Source: a virus
Reading direction: 5' to 3' (one strand)
DNA length: 63,207 nucleotides
IMG/VR virus record: IMGVR_UViG_3300013102_000033
Span: 1-63,207 of that record
Translations under genes and position numbers: made by a program
Notes under the pieces: model-generated
The model's input: the letters and a program-made list of their open reading frames with translations, nothing else
What the model was told of the DNA's origin: nothing
Databases searched by the model: none
Shown: positions 28,300 through 62,416 of the stretch, piece by piece
How positions within the stretch are numbered: position 1 is the first letter of the stretch
Layout: each line of letters begins with the position of its first letter

Positions 28300-28560
28300 T
28301 CCTTTTAACTCATTAACCCATTATCTCAATAAACTCAAGCATCCCATTCAATCAGGCACCTTTTTATAAAAGGCCTATATAAGGATTTAAAAAACTATTT
28401 TTGAAAATCAAAATCGAAATTTAAAAAAGTAGCCTGATTGAATGGGTTGAATGAGAAACCTAAGTTAATGAGTTAATGAGTGATTAGTTCAATTGAAAGT
28501 GTTATTTAAGCTTTTTTAGAATATATATATTTATATCTCTATATATACTCTTTTAATTGT
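28300..28560 (-). repeat. AT-rich element, inverted partner of 88-405
   Basis: Read on the minus strand this region matches 88-405 over several blocks; see that entry. Within it AACTCATT/AATGAGTT arms can form a long imperfect hairpin (for example CATTCAATCAGGC at 28352 with GCCTGATTGAATG at 28434). It separates the DUF1256-like gene from the three-gene mini-operon. Confidence 0.75.
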
Positions 28561-56515: not shown

Positions 56516-57004
56516 ATGTTCAAAAGTATTGTAGATGTACCTGGCTATAGCGTTAACGAAAGTGGTGTTGTTATCAATGATAAGACTCATAAAGTACAAA
56601 AGCAATATACACAAAACGGCTATGTCAAAACAAGGATAGGTACGAAGCATTATAACGTGCATAGACTAGTAGCTGTTGCGTTTATAGGTGCAGCGCCGCA
56701 GGGCCGCGACAAGGTTAATCACAAGGACGGTAATAAGCTTAATAACTATTACACTAATTTAGAGTGGGTCTCACACAGTGAGAATATCCGGCATGCGTTT
56801 TCTACAGGTTTGTGCGTACCAGACAGCAAATCGTCAAAGCCTAAACCCGTCAGAAGATTGGACCCTACGGGTAAATTACCAGTAGTTGAGTATCCGTCTA
56901 TAACCAGCGCCGCTATGGCTAATAATGCCAGCGTATCCTGTATACTGAGATGCACTAGAGGAGAGCTCAAAACGTCAGGTGGTTTTATATGGACTTTGGT
57001 CTAG
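56516..57004 (+). CDS. HNH homing-endonuclease-like protein (NUMOD4-HNH-NUMOD1)
   Basis: 162 residues from the ATG at 56516 after GGAGGTG. N-terminal NUMOD4 pattern (VDVPGYSVNESGVVINDKTH), HNH core VHRLVAVAFIG ... VNHKDGNKLNNYYTNLEWVS (H, N, H present), then a NUMOD1-like helix-turn-helix (PSITSAAMANNASVSCILRC). Likely a free-standing homing nuclease that spreads itself between phage genomes. Confidence 0.88.
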   Translation: MFKSIVDVPGYSVNESGVVINDKTHKVQKQYTQNGYVKTRIGTKHYNVHRLVAVAFIGAAPQGRDKVNHKDGNKLNNYYTNLEWVSHSENIRHAFSTGLCVPDSKSSKPKPVRRLDPTGKLPVVEYPSITSAAMANNASVSCILRCTRGELKTSGGFIWTLV

Positions 57005-57033
57005 CCGGTTCCAGCGTCATGACGCTAGGCGCG

Positions 57034-57066
57034 GCCGAAAATGACTGAAAATTTTCGGCAATTTTT
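57034..57066 (+). terminator. Terminator after the homing-endonuclease gene
   Basis: GCCGAAAAT / ATTTTCGGC stem (9 bp) with an 8-base loop, followed by AATTTTTGG. A 14-bp perfect palindrome AGCGTCATGACGCT lies just upstream (57013-57026). Confidence 0.7.
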
Positions 57067-57320
57067 GGACTTTTTTCGTAACGTTTTCGTAAATTTTCAT
57101 TGCGCATTTTCGTCAACTTGTATATAGTTGTCGCAAATTCGTCGCAAATTCTTTTCTAAAATGTTCGCAATTTAGACACATACAGAAGTTGAATAATAAT
57201 ATATAATAAATATATAAAGTAAATAAATAAATTAATTAATAAATAAATACAAATTATTTATTAAATCTAAATTAATTTATTTAATTCAAAATCTAATTAA
57301 ATTTAAGTAAAAGGAGGCTT
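57067..57320. other. AT-rich region with short repeats, candidate origin
   Basis: TCGTAA and (G)TCGCAAATTC units repeat between 57076 and 57175 (TCGCAAATTC twice in a row), then about 130 bases of nearly pure A/T. This arrangement of short repeats beside an unwinding-prone block is what a phage replication origin often looks like. No gene seen. Function is inference. Confidence 0.4.
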
Positions 57321-57328
57321 GTTTAAGC

Positions 57329-57481
57329 ATGTATGTATGCCAACTAAATAAAAAACAACAAGAGCTTATTAAATCTGCACTCTTAAAAGCAGACATAAAA
57401 GGCGAAGATCTAGAAAATGCAATGGACTCAAAAGTTTCAGATTTAAGTGAAGTTATTAATTTAAAAAATATTTTAAAATAA
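57329..57481 (+). CDS. Small protein
   Basis: 50 residues (MYVCQLNKKQQELIKSALLK...), helical, preceded by AAGGAGG at 12 bases. AT-rich like its surroundings. No family recognised. Confidence 0.6.
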   Translation: MYVCQLNKKQQELIKSALLKADIKGEDLENAMDSKVSDLSEVINLKNILK

Positions 57482-57494
57482 TTTAAAAAAGCTA

Positions 57495-57523
57495 TTTACT
57501 TTTTCTAAGTTCTATGTTATAAT
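57495..57523 (+). promoter_or_regulatory. Sigma-A-like promoter
   Basis: TTTACT, 17-base spacer, TATAAT. A palindrome AAGTTATT-AATA-AATAACTT follows at 57547-57566 and could be an operator or leader hairpin. Confidence 0.6.
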
Positions 57524-57660
57524 AAATATATAAGTTAATAAGTAATAAGTTATTAATAAATAACTTAAATATAACTTACTTATAACTTTATTTAAAATCT
57601 GCTCTTTGACAATTTAATAATAGTAAACTGCTACAGTAAGCTAAAACTCTAGCAGTAAAA

Positions 57661-57996
57661 GCAGCAGCTAACTAATGCGCATGCTAAATAAAACAATAGA
57701 GGTGTATTTAGCATGCAAAAAGTACAAGTATCAATGCAGTTGTTAAAAGCTATGACAGCTTATTGCTTAGAACAAGCAGTAAGCAGCGATATTAACATTC
57801 ATGACTTTGCAGAAAACTATCAAGGCCTAGATCTAGCAGATGCAATAGCAGATTTAGCAGACTTAAAAGAAGCTATAAAAGCAGATAATGCAGATTTAAA
57901 AGACTTAGTAATCATTCAAGCAGAGACATATGCTTATTTAGAAAGCTTAGATCAAGACTAGTAAAAGCGCTAGCATGCGCATTAGTTAGCTGCTGC
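57661..57996 (+). promoter_or_regulatory. Nested inverted repeats around gene 57713 (possible RNA switch)
   Basis: Bases 57661-57686 are perfectly inverted at 57971-57996 (26 bp), enclosing the whole gene. The inner part of the left arm (57679-57690, GCATGCTAAATA) is also perfectly inverted at 57705-57716, which contains the gene's ATG; the GAGGTG ribosome-binding site lies in the 14-base loop. The left arm therefore can pair either with the start codon or with the distal arm, but not both. Confidence 0.65.
57713..57961 (+). CDS. Small acidic helical protein under a nested hairpin
   Basis: 82 residues (MQKVQVSMQLLKAMTAYCLE...), ending in acidic helices (LADAIADLADLKEAIKADNA). GAGGTG precedes the ATG by 8 bases but both lie inside a hairpin. 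The 15-base unit CAGTAAGCTAAAACT flanks the gene on both sides (57636 and 57995). No function recognised. Confidence 0.7.
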   Translation: MQKVQVSMQLLKAMTAYCLEQAVSSDINIHDFAENYQGLDLADAIADLADLKEAIKADNADLKDLVIIQAETYAYLESLDQD

Positions 57997-58032
57997 AGTA
58001 AGCTAAAACTAAACTAAGAAAAGAGTGATTTT

Positions 58033-58551
58033 ATGTCAACATTAAAAAACATTAGCGAATTAGCAAAAGAGTTTGACTCTGTAGATGCAGTAAAAGCAGA
58101 GTTAAAGCGCATACAGTCTGTAAAGTGCAGACTTAAAAAGCAGAAGTCTCTTAGCAGCTATGAAGCTAAAATGCAAGAAGTTCTTGCGCATGAGCAAGCA
58201 GTAAAAGAAGTAAGAGCTTTGCTTGAGCCAAGAGCTGTCACTTTTACAAGCATGACTGCAGAACAAGTAAAAGAGTTGAACTATGATGAGACTATTCGCG
58301 CTATAAAAAGCGTGCAGTCTAAAAAGTGCAATACTCAATACTTAACAGATGATATATCTACAAATGTGGAATATCAAGCAGCAATTGCTCAAGAAGCATT
58401 ATTGCTTGAGCATAAAAAGACAGTAAAGCCAATTGAAGATACTGTTGTAAAGAAGTCACAAATTAATGACTTAATTGAACAGTTGTCTGTTTTAGAACAA
58501 GAGCTTGATAAAGACTTTGTGATTGCAAGATTGCAAGAACTCTTAGCATAA
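58033..58551 (+). CDS. Helical protein with internal duplication
   Basis: 172 residues. Two units share the pattern (I)(Q/K)SV-x-K(C) ... (Y)(E)x...A ... (E)xxxxKxVxxxE: residues 26-68 (RIQSVKCRLKKQKSLSSYEA) and 88-136 (AIKSVQSKKCNTQYLTDDIS). Highly charged, coiled-coil-like. GTGAT upstream of ATG is weak. No known family. Confidence 0.65.
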   Translation: MSTLKNISELAKEFDSVDAVKAELKRIQSVKCRLKKQKSLSSYEAKMQEVLAHEQAVKEVRALLEPRAVTFTSMTAEQVKELNYDETIRAIKSVQSKKCNTQYLTDDISTNVEYQAAIAQEALLLEHKKTVKPIEDTVVKKSQINDLIEQLSVLEQELDKDFVIARLQELLA

Positions 58552-58585
58552 GCTAAGAGTTTCAACTAAAAGGAGGAAGTTAAAA

Positions 58586-58768
58586 ATGACTAAAGAACAA
58601 ATTGCAGCTTTAAGAAAGTTACAAGAAGCATTGGAAATGTTGTCTATAGAGTACGATAACAGTCCCGATGAGTTCGGAATGATGCTTGACTACAAAGCTT
58701 GGTTCGGAAAAGACTTGTTGGAAATGCATCGTGACATCTCTCACGAAATTGAGAAGCTGCAGCGATAA
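58586..58768 (+). CDS. Small helical protein
   Basis: 60 residues (MTKEQIAALRKLQEALEMLS...), with AAAGGAGG 10 bases before the ATG. Two amphipathic helices. Followed by an intrinsic terminator. No family recognised. Confidence 0.65.
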   Translation: MTKEQIAALRKLQEALEMLSIEYDNSPDEFGMMLDYKAWFGKDLLEMHRDISHEIEKLQR

Positions 58769-58785
58769 GCTGCAGTTTCTTAATT
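58751..58785 (+). terminator. Terminator
   Basis: GAAGCTGCAG / CTGCAGTTTC (one G-U) overlapping the stop of the 58586 gene, with TTTCTTAATT after. Ends the 57.5-58.8 kb unit. Confidence 0.65.
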
Positions 58786-58790
58786 ACTTG

Positions 58791-58819
58791 TTTACAACTG
58801 CATAGAAACATGATATAAT
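58791..58819 (+). promoter_or_regulatory. Sigma-A-like promoter
   Basis: TTTACA, 17-base spacer, TATAAT within ATGATATAATTAA. The ATGATATAATTA surround recurs at 59811, 60124 and 61430. Confidence 0.7.
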
Positions 58820-58842
58820 TAAGTTAATAAGGAGATGATAAT

Positions 58843-59788: not shown

Positions 59789-59810
59789 TCCTTTTCTATT
59801 GGTATAATTA

Positions 59811-59839
59811 ATTATATCATACTTCTATGCAGCTGTACA
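59811..59839 (-). promoter_or_regulatory. Sigma-A-like promoter
   Basis: Minus strand: TGTACA, 17-base spacer, TATAAT, for the 59788 gene. The downstream bases ATAATTA match the rightward promoters. Confidence 0.65.
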
Positions 59840-61435: not shown

Positions 61436-61486
61436 TATAAATGTAAGGAAGATCATTGACAACTAAATTATAGAGGAGCGATTCAA

Positions 61487-62416
61487 ATGACAAAGATTGA
61501 TCTGAAGAAAGCTGCAAAAACCGACGGCGACGGTAAGGAAGAAGTAATCGAAGAGCAACAGCAAACCGGCGGTGAACAAACAGTAACTGAGGAGAAACCA
61601 GCGTCACTTCTTCAATCGCTGATTGCAACTGGTGATGAAAGCGCGCCGTCTTCAAGAGGCAACCAAAAAGTTGCGACCGCTGATTTGACAGCGAACGCTA
61701 CGTCGTTAGCTAATGATATTTTGCGCGATCTTGATAAACCTGAGAACATCGCAAAGTACAAAGAGCTGTTCGATAAAAGCGTTACTGACAACGACTCACT
61801 GGATCTGCTTATTGCAAGTATCAGTCCACTTGATGATATTGAAGTAGGCTACTTGGTTGCAGTCGGTGAAGAAGAACTTGACAAGATGCTTCGGTCTCAA
61901 CAGTCCAAGCGTAGTCGTTCGAAGAACAAAGACGACTTCAAGCTTGATGACTACAAGACGATGTTGGTTGCAGCTATTGCTGAAGGTCTTATCCGCAAAG
62001 CGATGGGTAAGCCTAAGGGAAGCGGCAGTGCAACATTCGACGGTAGCGACTTCACAGACAAGCAGATTGAAGAGTTTAAGACAGATGATGACAAGCTTGC
62101 CAAAGCGATTCGCAATGTGCAAAGCAAAAAGTCGATCGCAAAAGCTAAACGCGATCATGACGAAACTGGTGATCTTTGGCAGCACCTGCTGCGTCAAGAA
62201 GCATTCCTCAAGAACTTGCGCGATAATCGTAAACCGGTCATCACTCCAGAGATCGAGGATGCACTGACAGCTAAGGAAGCTGCAGAAGCACTGCTTGCAT
62301 CCGTAGAGGACCCTAACAACATGTCGCTGGATGATGCTAAGGCACTGTTCGAAAAGCTTAGAGAAACATTAGCTTCCGCGGCGCCGCAAGACGAACAGTC
62401 AGAGGCTGAAGAATGA
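61487..62416 (+). CDS. Large charged protein of unknown function
   Basis: 309 residues, GGAG before the ATG. N-terminal 65 residues are polar and disordered (EEQQQTGGEQTVTEEKPASL); the middle is helical (LANDILRDLDKPENIAKYKE) with a basic patch KRSRSKNKDDFK; the C-terminal third is coiled-coil-like (EAFLKNLRDNRK... EALLASVEDP). Largest gene of the right arm and headed by a strong promoter, so probably an abundant early product. No family recognised. Confidence 0.7.
   Translation: MTKIDLKKAAKTDGDGKEEVIEEQQQTGGEQTVTEEKPASLLQSLIATGDESAPSSRGNQKVATADLTANATSLANDILRDLDKPENIAKYKELFDKSVTDNDSLDLLIASISPLDDIEVGYLVAVGEEELDKMLRSQQSKRSRSKNKDDFKLDDYKTMLVAAIAEGLIRKAMGKPKGSGSATFDGSDFTDKQIEEFKTDDDKLAKAIRNVQSKKSIAKAKRDHDETGDLWQHLLRQEAFLKNLRDNRKPVITPEIEDALTAKEAAEALLASVEDPNNMSLDDAKALFEKLRETLASAAPQDEQSEAEE

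What the first reader, a model, noticed from the sequence alone, without database searches (positions are those of the whole stretch)
57661..57996. Mutually exclusive hairpins controlling a small gene
The 26-base left arm pairs perfectly with a distal arm beyond the gene, and its inner 12 bases pair perfectly with the sequence containing the ATG while leaving the ribosome-binding site in the loop. This is the geometry of a translation or RNA-stability switch: the proximal hairpin hides the start, the distal one frees it and wraps the whole message. The same 15-base unit also flanks the gene directly.
Basis: partly seen in the sequence, partly recalled or inferred. Interest (0 to 1): 0.72.

Follow-up and report, generated by a model that had tools for sequence, protein, structure and literature searches.

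The report
Small phage gene between pairing arms
A tiny gene of unknown function in a bacterial virus sits between two perfectly matching 26-letter arms and has its start signal folded into a hairpin, so its message may stay silent until the whole gene has been copied; the fold is real on paper, but no relative carries it and nothing has been tested.

Summary
The sequence facts hold. The 26/26 inverted repeat 57661-57686/57971-57996 encloses an 82-codon ORF (p82). A 12/12 hairpin 57679-57690/57705-57716 buries its ATG with GAGGTG in the loop. CAGTAAGCTAAAACT flanks the unit twice. The repeat exceeds chance (300 shuffles, longest 16), and no other start among 84 in the window or 241 in relatives is buried by more than 8 perfect pairs. 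"Mutually exclusive" is only partly right: the helices contest 8 nt, and 18 distal pairs coexist with the hairpin. Folding supports the proposed direction: opening SD-to-ATG costs 12.5 kcal/mol until the distal arm is made, 5.9 after, and 12.5 again if that arm is shuffled. Relatives give no covariation test: 26 related leaders keep the downstream gene, and 14 a boxA-like rRNA antitermination element, but none has p82 or arms. So arms and gene probably arrived together, behind boxA, between 15-bp direct repeats. Best reading: an RNA-level delay of p82 translation by a start-burying hairpin that a trailing arm relieves. Main rival: an inert insertion scar. New variant of a known kind; untested.

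The parts
57495..57523 (+). early promoter, TTTACT-17-TATAAT with TG before the second hexamer
   Evidence: consensus scan; a similar promoter-like sequence stands in the same place in several relatives
57600..57619 (+). boxA-like rRNA antitermination element TGCTCTTTGACAATTTAATA
   Evidence: 17 of 20 bases equal the E. coli rrnB leader TGCTCTTTAACAATTTATCA; similar element in 14 of 26 related leaders at up to 3 mismatches, 3% of shuffled leaders
57621..57648 (+). left direct repeat (last 15 nt identical to right copy; 25 of 28 over the long version)
57661..57686 (+). left arm of the 26-nt inverted repeat
   Evidence: 26/26 complementary to 57971-57996
57679..57690 (+). 5' strand of the proximal start-codon hairpin
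   Evidence: predicted pair probability 0.99 in transcripts ending before the distal arm
57699..57704 (+). Shine-Dalgarno-like GAGGTG, in the hairpin loop
   Evidence: sequence
57705..57716 (+). 3' strand of the proximal hairpin, holds the ATG
57713..57961 (+). p82, 82-codon ORF of unknown function, acidic (16 D/E, 5 K/R)
   Evidence: no relative found; GC by codon position 0.54/0.26/0.22, like its neighbours
57971..57996 (+). right (distal) arm, begins 9 nt after the stop codon
57996..58010 (+). right direct repeat CAGTAAGCTAAAACT (long version 57983-58010)
58033..58551 (+). p172, downstream gene, undescribed conserved phage family
   Evidence: 26 related leader loci; no reliable family or fold match

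Best explanation
A small phage gene (p82), gained as a unit between a boxA-bearing early leader and the conserved gene p172, is controlled through its own RNA folds. Shown in sequence: a perfect 12-bp hairpin buries the ATG, and a perfect 26-nt arm beyond the stop codon matches the leader arm and contests 8 nt of that hairpin. Predicted by folding: the nascent message is closed until RNA polymerase passes 57996; the distal helix then forms, 18 pairs always and the inner 8 in about half of molecules, and lowers the cost of opening the start by about 6.6 kcal/mol. Inferred: translation of p82 is thus delayed until the whole gene has been transcribed, decoupling it from transcription, while boxA would protect the untranslated stretch from Rho; the long helix may also be cut by RNase III or shield the message ends.
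For: Repeat and hairpin far beyond chance and placed exactly on a gene. Structure signal lies in the leader and arms, not in the coding part: z -3.67 for 57621-57720, +0.56 for 57717-57970, -4.93 for the whole. Opening cost of SD-to-ATG 12.5 before the distal arm, 5.9 with it; 12.5 (sd 0.3, n=40) with the right arm shuffled and 6.3 (sd 1.5, n=40) with the left arm shuffled. The hairpin has 4 pairs beyond the arm (57687-57690/57705-57708), which the arm repeat alone does not explain. Upstream promoter and boxA make it likely that the region is transcribed as one message.
Against: No relative has p82 or the arms, so no covariation or conservation supports function. The two full-length states are equal in energy, so the model predicts a loose bias, not a clean switch. 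Folding ignores ribosomes, proteins and kinetics, and one energy set was in effect used. GCATGC is itself a palindrome, which makes part of the pairing cheap. Direct repeats and patchy presence fit an insertion scar. Transcription and translation of p82 are unproven.
Confidence: 0.45

Rival explanations
1. Insertion scar: p82 came in as a small DNA unit with inverted-repeat ends between duplicated target or recombination sequences; the arms are recent ends of that unit and have no RNA role.
For: 26 of 26 related leaders lack p82 and arms. Flanking 15-bp direct repeats. With p82 and one repeat copy left out, the leader aligns better to its TerL relative L015 (score 85.0 against 72.0). Perfect identity of the arms suggests youth.
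Against: Ends are not those of a usual transposon: 12 nt between direct repeat and left arm, 1-nt overlap on the right. No second copy in the window; no PF00239 or PF00589 recombinase (transposase families were not tested). The empty-site gain is not seen for all: L016, L018 and L038 score higher with the full form. A scar does not explain the hairpin on the start.
Confidence: 0.27
2. Processing helix: the long stem is mainly an RNase III site or end shield that cuts p82 out of the early transcript, like the leader-trailer helix behind boxA in rRNA operons.
For: 18 outer pairs form in every predicted full-length state; boxA precedes the arm, the order of rRNA leaders (PMC10250234, abstract); 5'-3' UTR duplexes of an mRNA are RNase III substrates in icaR (PMC3868564, passages).
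Against: Does not need the start-codon hairpin; no cleavage data; no relative has a helix here.
Confidence: 0.18
3. DNA operator or inversion site: the repeats are recognised by a repressor or an invertase.
For: TAGCATGC-type words recur at 57675-57686, 57709 and 57971; 26-bp inverted sites could flip the gene.
Against: No resolvase or tyrosine recombinase family in the window; no inverted form seen; the sites lie about 150 nt or more downstream of the promoter; the 26-mer is not itself a two-half palindrome (read from the sequence).
Confidence: 0.05
4. Chance arrangement without function or event.
For: A 12-bp hairpin alone turns up in 7 of 300 shuffles of 1.8 kb.
Against: The 26-nt perfect repeat is far outside the shuffles (longest 16).
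Confidence: 0.02

Closest known systems
T4-type hairpins that sequester the ribosome binding site (I-TevI, segB, mobE, soc, gene e; PMC2988022 section 12 read, PMC3014915 passages)
   Same: A strong hairpin over the start region of a small or inserted phage gene on a message from an upstream promoter.
   Different: There, expression comes from a late promoter placed so that late messages lack the hairpin's 5' part; here a distal arm beyond the gene competes for the stem, and no such promoter is shown. Here the ATG is in the stem and the SD in the loop.
timP mRNA (PMC11228461, abstract and part of the introduction)
   Same: Mutually exclusive mRNA folds proposed to set translation of a small gene and to prevent co-transcriptional translation.
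   Different: timP uses a pseudoknot and an antisense sRNA and encodes a membrane toxin; here a long-range helix, no antisense RNA known, and an acidic protein.
icaR 5'-3' UTR pairing in Staphylococcus aureus (PMC3868564, abstract and passages)
   Same: 3' UTR pairs with the 5' UTR of the same message; possible RNase III substrate.
   Different: In icaR the pairing covers the SD and represses; here it lies upstream of the SD and is predicted to relieve repression.
rRNA boxA leader with leader-trailer helix (PMC10250234, abstract)
   Same: boxA followed by a long helix that encloses the product.
   Different: Encloses a protein-coding gene, not rRNA; helix of 18-26 bp.

Membership tests
T4-type RBS-sequestering hairpin | stable hairpin covering SD and/or start codon | tested here: met
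   12/12 stem with ATG inside, SD in loop; pair probability 0.99 before the distal arm
T4-type RBS-sequestering hairpin | message from an upstream promoter carries the hairpin | tested here: inconclusive
   promoter-like site 57495-57523; no transcript data
T4-type RBS-sequestering hairpin | internal late promoter gives a message without the 5' strand | not testable with these tools
   late promoter consensus of this phage unknown
5'-3' UTR pairing control (icaR type) | perfect or near-perfect pairing of 5' and 3' UTR | tested here: met
   26/26
5'-3' UTR pairing control (icaR type) | pairing covers the SD | tested here: not met
   arm 57661-57686, SD 57699-57704
5'-3' UTR pairing control (icaR type) | RNase III cleavage of the duplex | not testable with these tools
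   needs RNA experiments
type I toxin mRNA | small hydrophobic membrane toxin | tested here: not met
   82 aa, 16 D/E and 5 K/R; low-confidence helical model, pLDDT 60.5
type I toxin mRNA | antisense antitoxin RNA | not tested
   only a promoter consensus scan was made
transposon or MITE-like unit | terminal inverted repeats | tested here: met
   26/26
transposon or MITE-like unit | target duplication directly abutting both ends | tested here: not met
   15-bp direct repeats, but 12 nt from the left arm and overlapping the right one by 1 nt
transposon or MITE-like unit | further copies | tested here: not met
   one copy in the window; no relative of p82 in 31 related records, phages or plasmids
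invertible segment | site-specific recombinase encoded nearby | tested here: not met
   no PF00239 or PF00589 match in the window
boxA antitermination leader | boxA sequence in the leader RNA | tested here: met
   17/20 to E. coli rrnB; 14 of 26 related leaders
boxA antitermination leader | Nus-factor binding and read-through | not testable with these tools
   needs experiments

The most novel reading that the evidence does not exclude
A phage protein gene arranged like an rRNA operon: a boxA leader lets polymerase run through an untranslated message, a hairpin keeps the start shut, and the trailing arm completes a leader-trailer helix that opens the start only once the whole gene has been transcribed, so translation is gated by completeness of the message.
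Probability: 0.12. Interest if true: 0.7.

Novelty: new variant of a known kind. Interest (0 to 1): 0.42.

Why it matters
If true, it would be a compact way to uncouple translation from transcription with no protein or antisense RNA: the message reports its own completeness through a trailing arm. The sequence is short enough for a simple reporter test. Apart from that, the boxA-like element conserved in front of p172-type genes suggests that this unstudied phage group borrows the host rRNA antitermination machinery for early transcription.

Tried and rejected
p82 homology: no relative in viral contigs, phages, plasmids, 31 related records (which warns that an empty answer without a positive control shows nothing), Pfam or PADLOC. 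PHROGs gave only E 0.0095 (holin) and 0.022, in a low-complexity acidic helix; I do not take these as homology. A 20-base exact arm pattern was absent from viral contigs. Rfam found nothing in the window at gathering scores. DNA comparison with the 31 related records gave only short weak matches, the best being the boxA stretch in the record of L026 (E 0.005).

Structure: the p82 model is too weak for a fold search (pLDDT 60.5). p172 folds as helices (pLDDT 83.0, 25 sequences), with no PDB match at E 0.001 or better. The weak similarity of p50 to p82 (best three local matches E 0.027-0.077, no composition correction) was not taken as homology. The local pairing of 57621-57632 with the left arm is disfavoured by 5.5 kcal/mol (ensemble -99.9 against -105.4). 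The 22-bp inverted repeat of L005 (7957-8348) was checked as a possible parallel: it lies in a spacer between divergent genes and does not enclose a small gene in the manner of p82.

Limits of my own calls: the second energy set gave the same numbers as the first, so it is no independent check, and the opening costs for the forced '18+12' state are meaningless because the constraints conflict. The multiple alignment is poor in the AT-rich leader.

Literature: searches listed no paper that I recognised as describing this phage group, a boxA in its early leader, or a completeness-gated start; most listed papers were judged by title and start of abstract only.

Full report
What is there. The window is a 63.2-kb virus record. 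At 57495-57523 stands a promoter-like site. It is followed by a leader with a boxA-like element at 57600-57619, a 15-nt direct repeat (57634-57648), a 26-nt arm (57661-57686), an 82-codon ORF (p82, 57713-57961), the second arm (57971-57996), the second direct repeat (57996-58010) and the gene p172 (58033-58551). The arms are 26/26 complementary. A 12/12 hairpin (57679-57690/57705-57716) holds the ATG in its stem and GAGGTG in its loop.

Chance. In 300 dinucleotide shuffles of 57001-58800 the longest perfect inverted repeat (span up to 400) was 16; within a span of 45, 7 of 300 reached 12 or more. So the 26-nt repeat is not chance, while the hairpin alone would be unremarkable if it did not lie on a start. 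Among 85 ORFs picked greedily in the window (some surely not genes), only p82 has more than 8 perfect pairs over its start. In 31 related loci 0 of 241 ATG+SD starts exceeded 8. The 15-nt direct repeat was matched in length by 1 of 500 mononucleotide shuffles.

Is p82 a gene? It has a Shine-Dalgarno-like sequence at a normal distance (8 nt between the last G and the ATG), GC 0.54/0.26/0.22 by codon position, and similar alanine and leucine codon habits to p172 and p50. It is acidic (16 D/E, 5 K/R). No homologue was found. Probably a gene; function unknown.

Folding. Transcripts from 57528 that end at or before 57970 form the hairpin with mean pair probability 0.99. Once the right arm is included, the outer 18 distal pairs form with probability 1.00, the inner 8 with 0.56, and the hairpin falls to 0.48 on average. 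The best structure with 26 distal pairs (-136.2) and that with 18 distal plus 12 proximal pairs (-136.3) are equal. The cost of opening 57699-57715 is 12.5 kcal/mol before the distal arm and 5.9 with it. Shuffling the letters of the right arm puts it back to 12.5 (n=40, sd 0.3); shuffling the left arm, which removes both helices, gives 6.3 (n=40, sd 1.5). So on paper the distal arm cancels what the hairpin does. The sign holds at 25, 30, 50 and 55 C. The leader is unusually structured (z -3.67), the coding part is not (z +0.56).

Relatives. p172 is a conserved, undescribed family: 26 distinct related leader loci (three in metagenome-assembled genomes). Their leaders were read over up to 700 nt. 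None has p82 or a perfect inverted repeat longer than 17, and the repeats of 16-17 found (L017, L018, L020, L029) do not enclose an ORF with a Shine-Dalgarno sequence as far as I could see. One (L036, same record as L012) has another small ORF with a Shine-Dalgarno sequence just before the family gene. 14 of 26 have the boxA-like element at up to 3 mismatches within 500 nt upstream (11 of 26 at up to 1), against 3% of shuffled upstream regions. The window's copy equals the E. coli rrnB leader in 17 of 20 bases. Thus the p82 unit sits between an older boxA leader and p172. Leaving out p82 and one direct repeat makes the leader align better to L015 (85.0 against 72.0), L039 (88.0 against 83.0) and L037 (48.5 against 44.0), but worse to L016, L018 and L038 (6 relatives scored); this supports insertion only weakly beyond plain presence and absence.

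Reading. Arms and gene are absent together, so they probably came together. The hairpin extends 4 pairs beyond the arm, and the arms hug the gene (26 nt before the ATG, 9 nt after the stop). This favours an RNA role, but perfect arms between direct repeats are also what a young insertion would leave. I put 0.45 on RNA-level control of p82, 0.27 on an insertion scar without RNA role, and 0.18 on a processing helix. Steps shown: pairing, place, absence in relatives. Predicted: closing and loosening of the start. Inferred: delay of translation until the gene is fully transcribed, protection of the untranslated message by boxA, RNase III cleavage.

Compared with the known. Hairpins over starts of inserted phage genes are established in T4 and relatives (PMC2988022, section 12 read; PMC3014915, passages). 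Alternative mRNA folds that prevent co-transcriptional translation are proposed for timP (PMC11228461, abstract and part of the introduction), and 5'-3' UTR pairing for icaR (PMC3868564, abstract and passages). The rRNA leader-trailer helix with boxA (PMC10250234, abstract) is the nearest analogue in layout. The combination here - a trailing arm that competes with a start hairpin behind boxA - was not met in my searches. It works like members of known kinds; it is a proven member of none.

Noticed in passing
window 57600-57619 and 61452-61469; L020:3669, L027:5817: boxA-like rRNA antitermination sequences close behind the early promoters of two operons in the window, and in 14 of 26 related leaders; suggests that this phage group uses host Nus-factor antitermination.
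   Followed up: partly
window 58033-58551 and 61487-62416: p172 and p309 share a repeated [IV]QSKK[CS] motif (tblastn E 0.001-0.003); both belong to undescribed families conserved in related phages.
   Followed up: partly
L004 4020-4250, L025 and L029 leaders, window 57202-57255 and 57518-57571: The early promoter module (TTTAC...TATAAT) is repeated two or three times in tandem in front of the p172 family gene.
   Followed up: no
window 56516-57004: HNH homing endonuclease gene just upstream, without a match in the related loci held; perhaps another recent arrival in the same spacer.
   Followed up: no
window 28308-28481: 58-nt inverted repeat, 78% complementary, 58 nt between the arms.
   Followed up: no
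window 58793-58822 and 59808-59837: Near-identical early promoters on opposite strands (90% over 30 nt), reported as an inverted repeat.
   Followed up: no
L012 1571-1759: Long nested hairpin with perfect arms of 22, 16 and 27 nt in an AT-rich spacer of a related phage.
   Followed up: no
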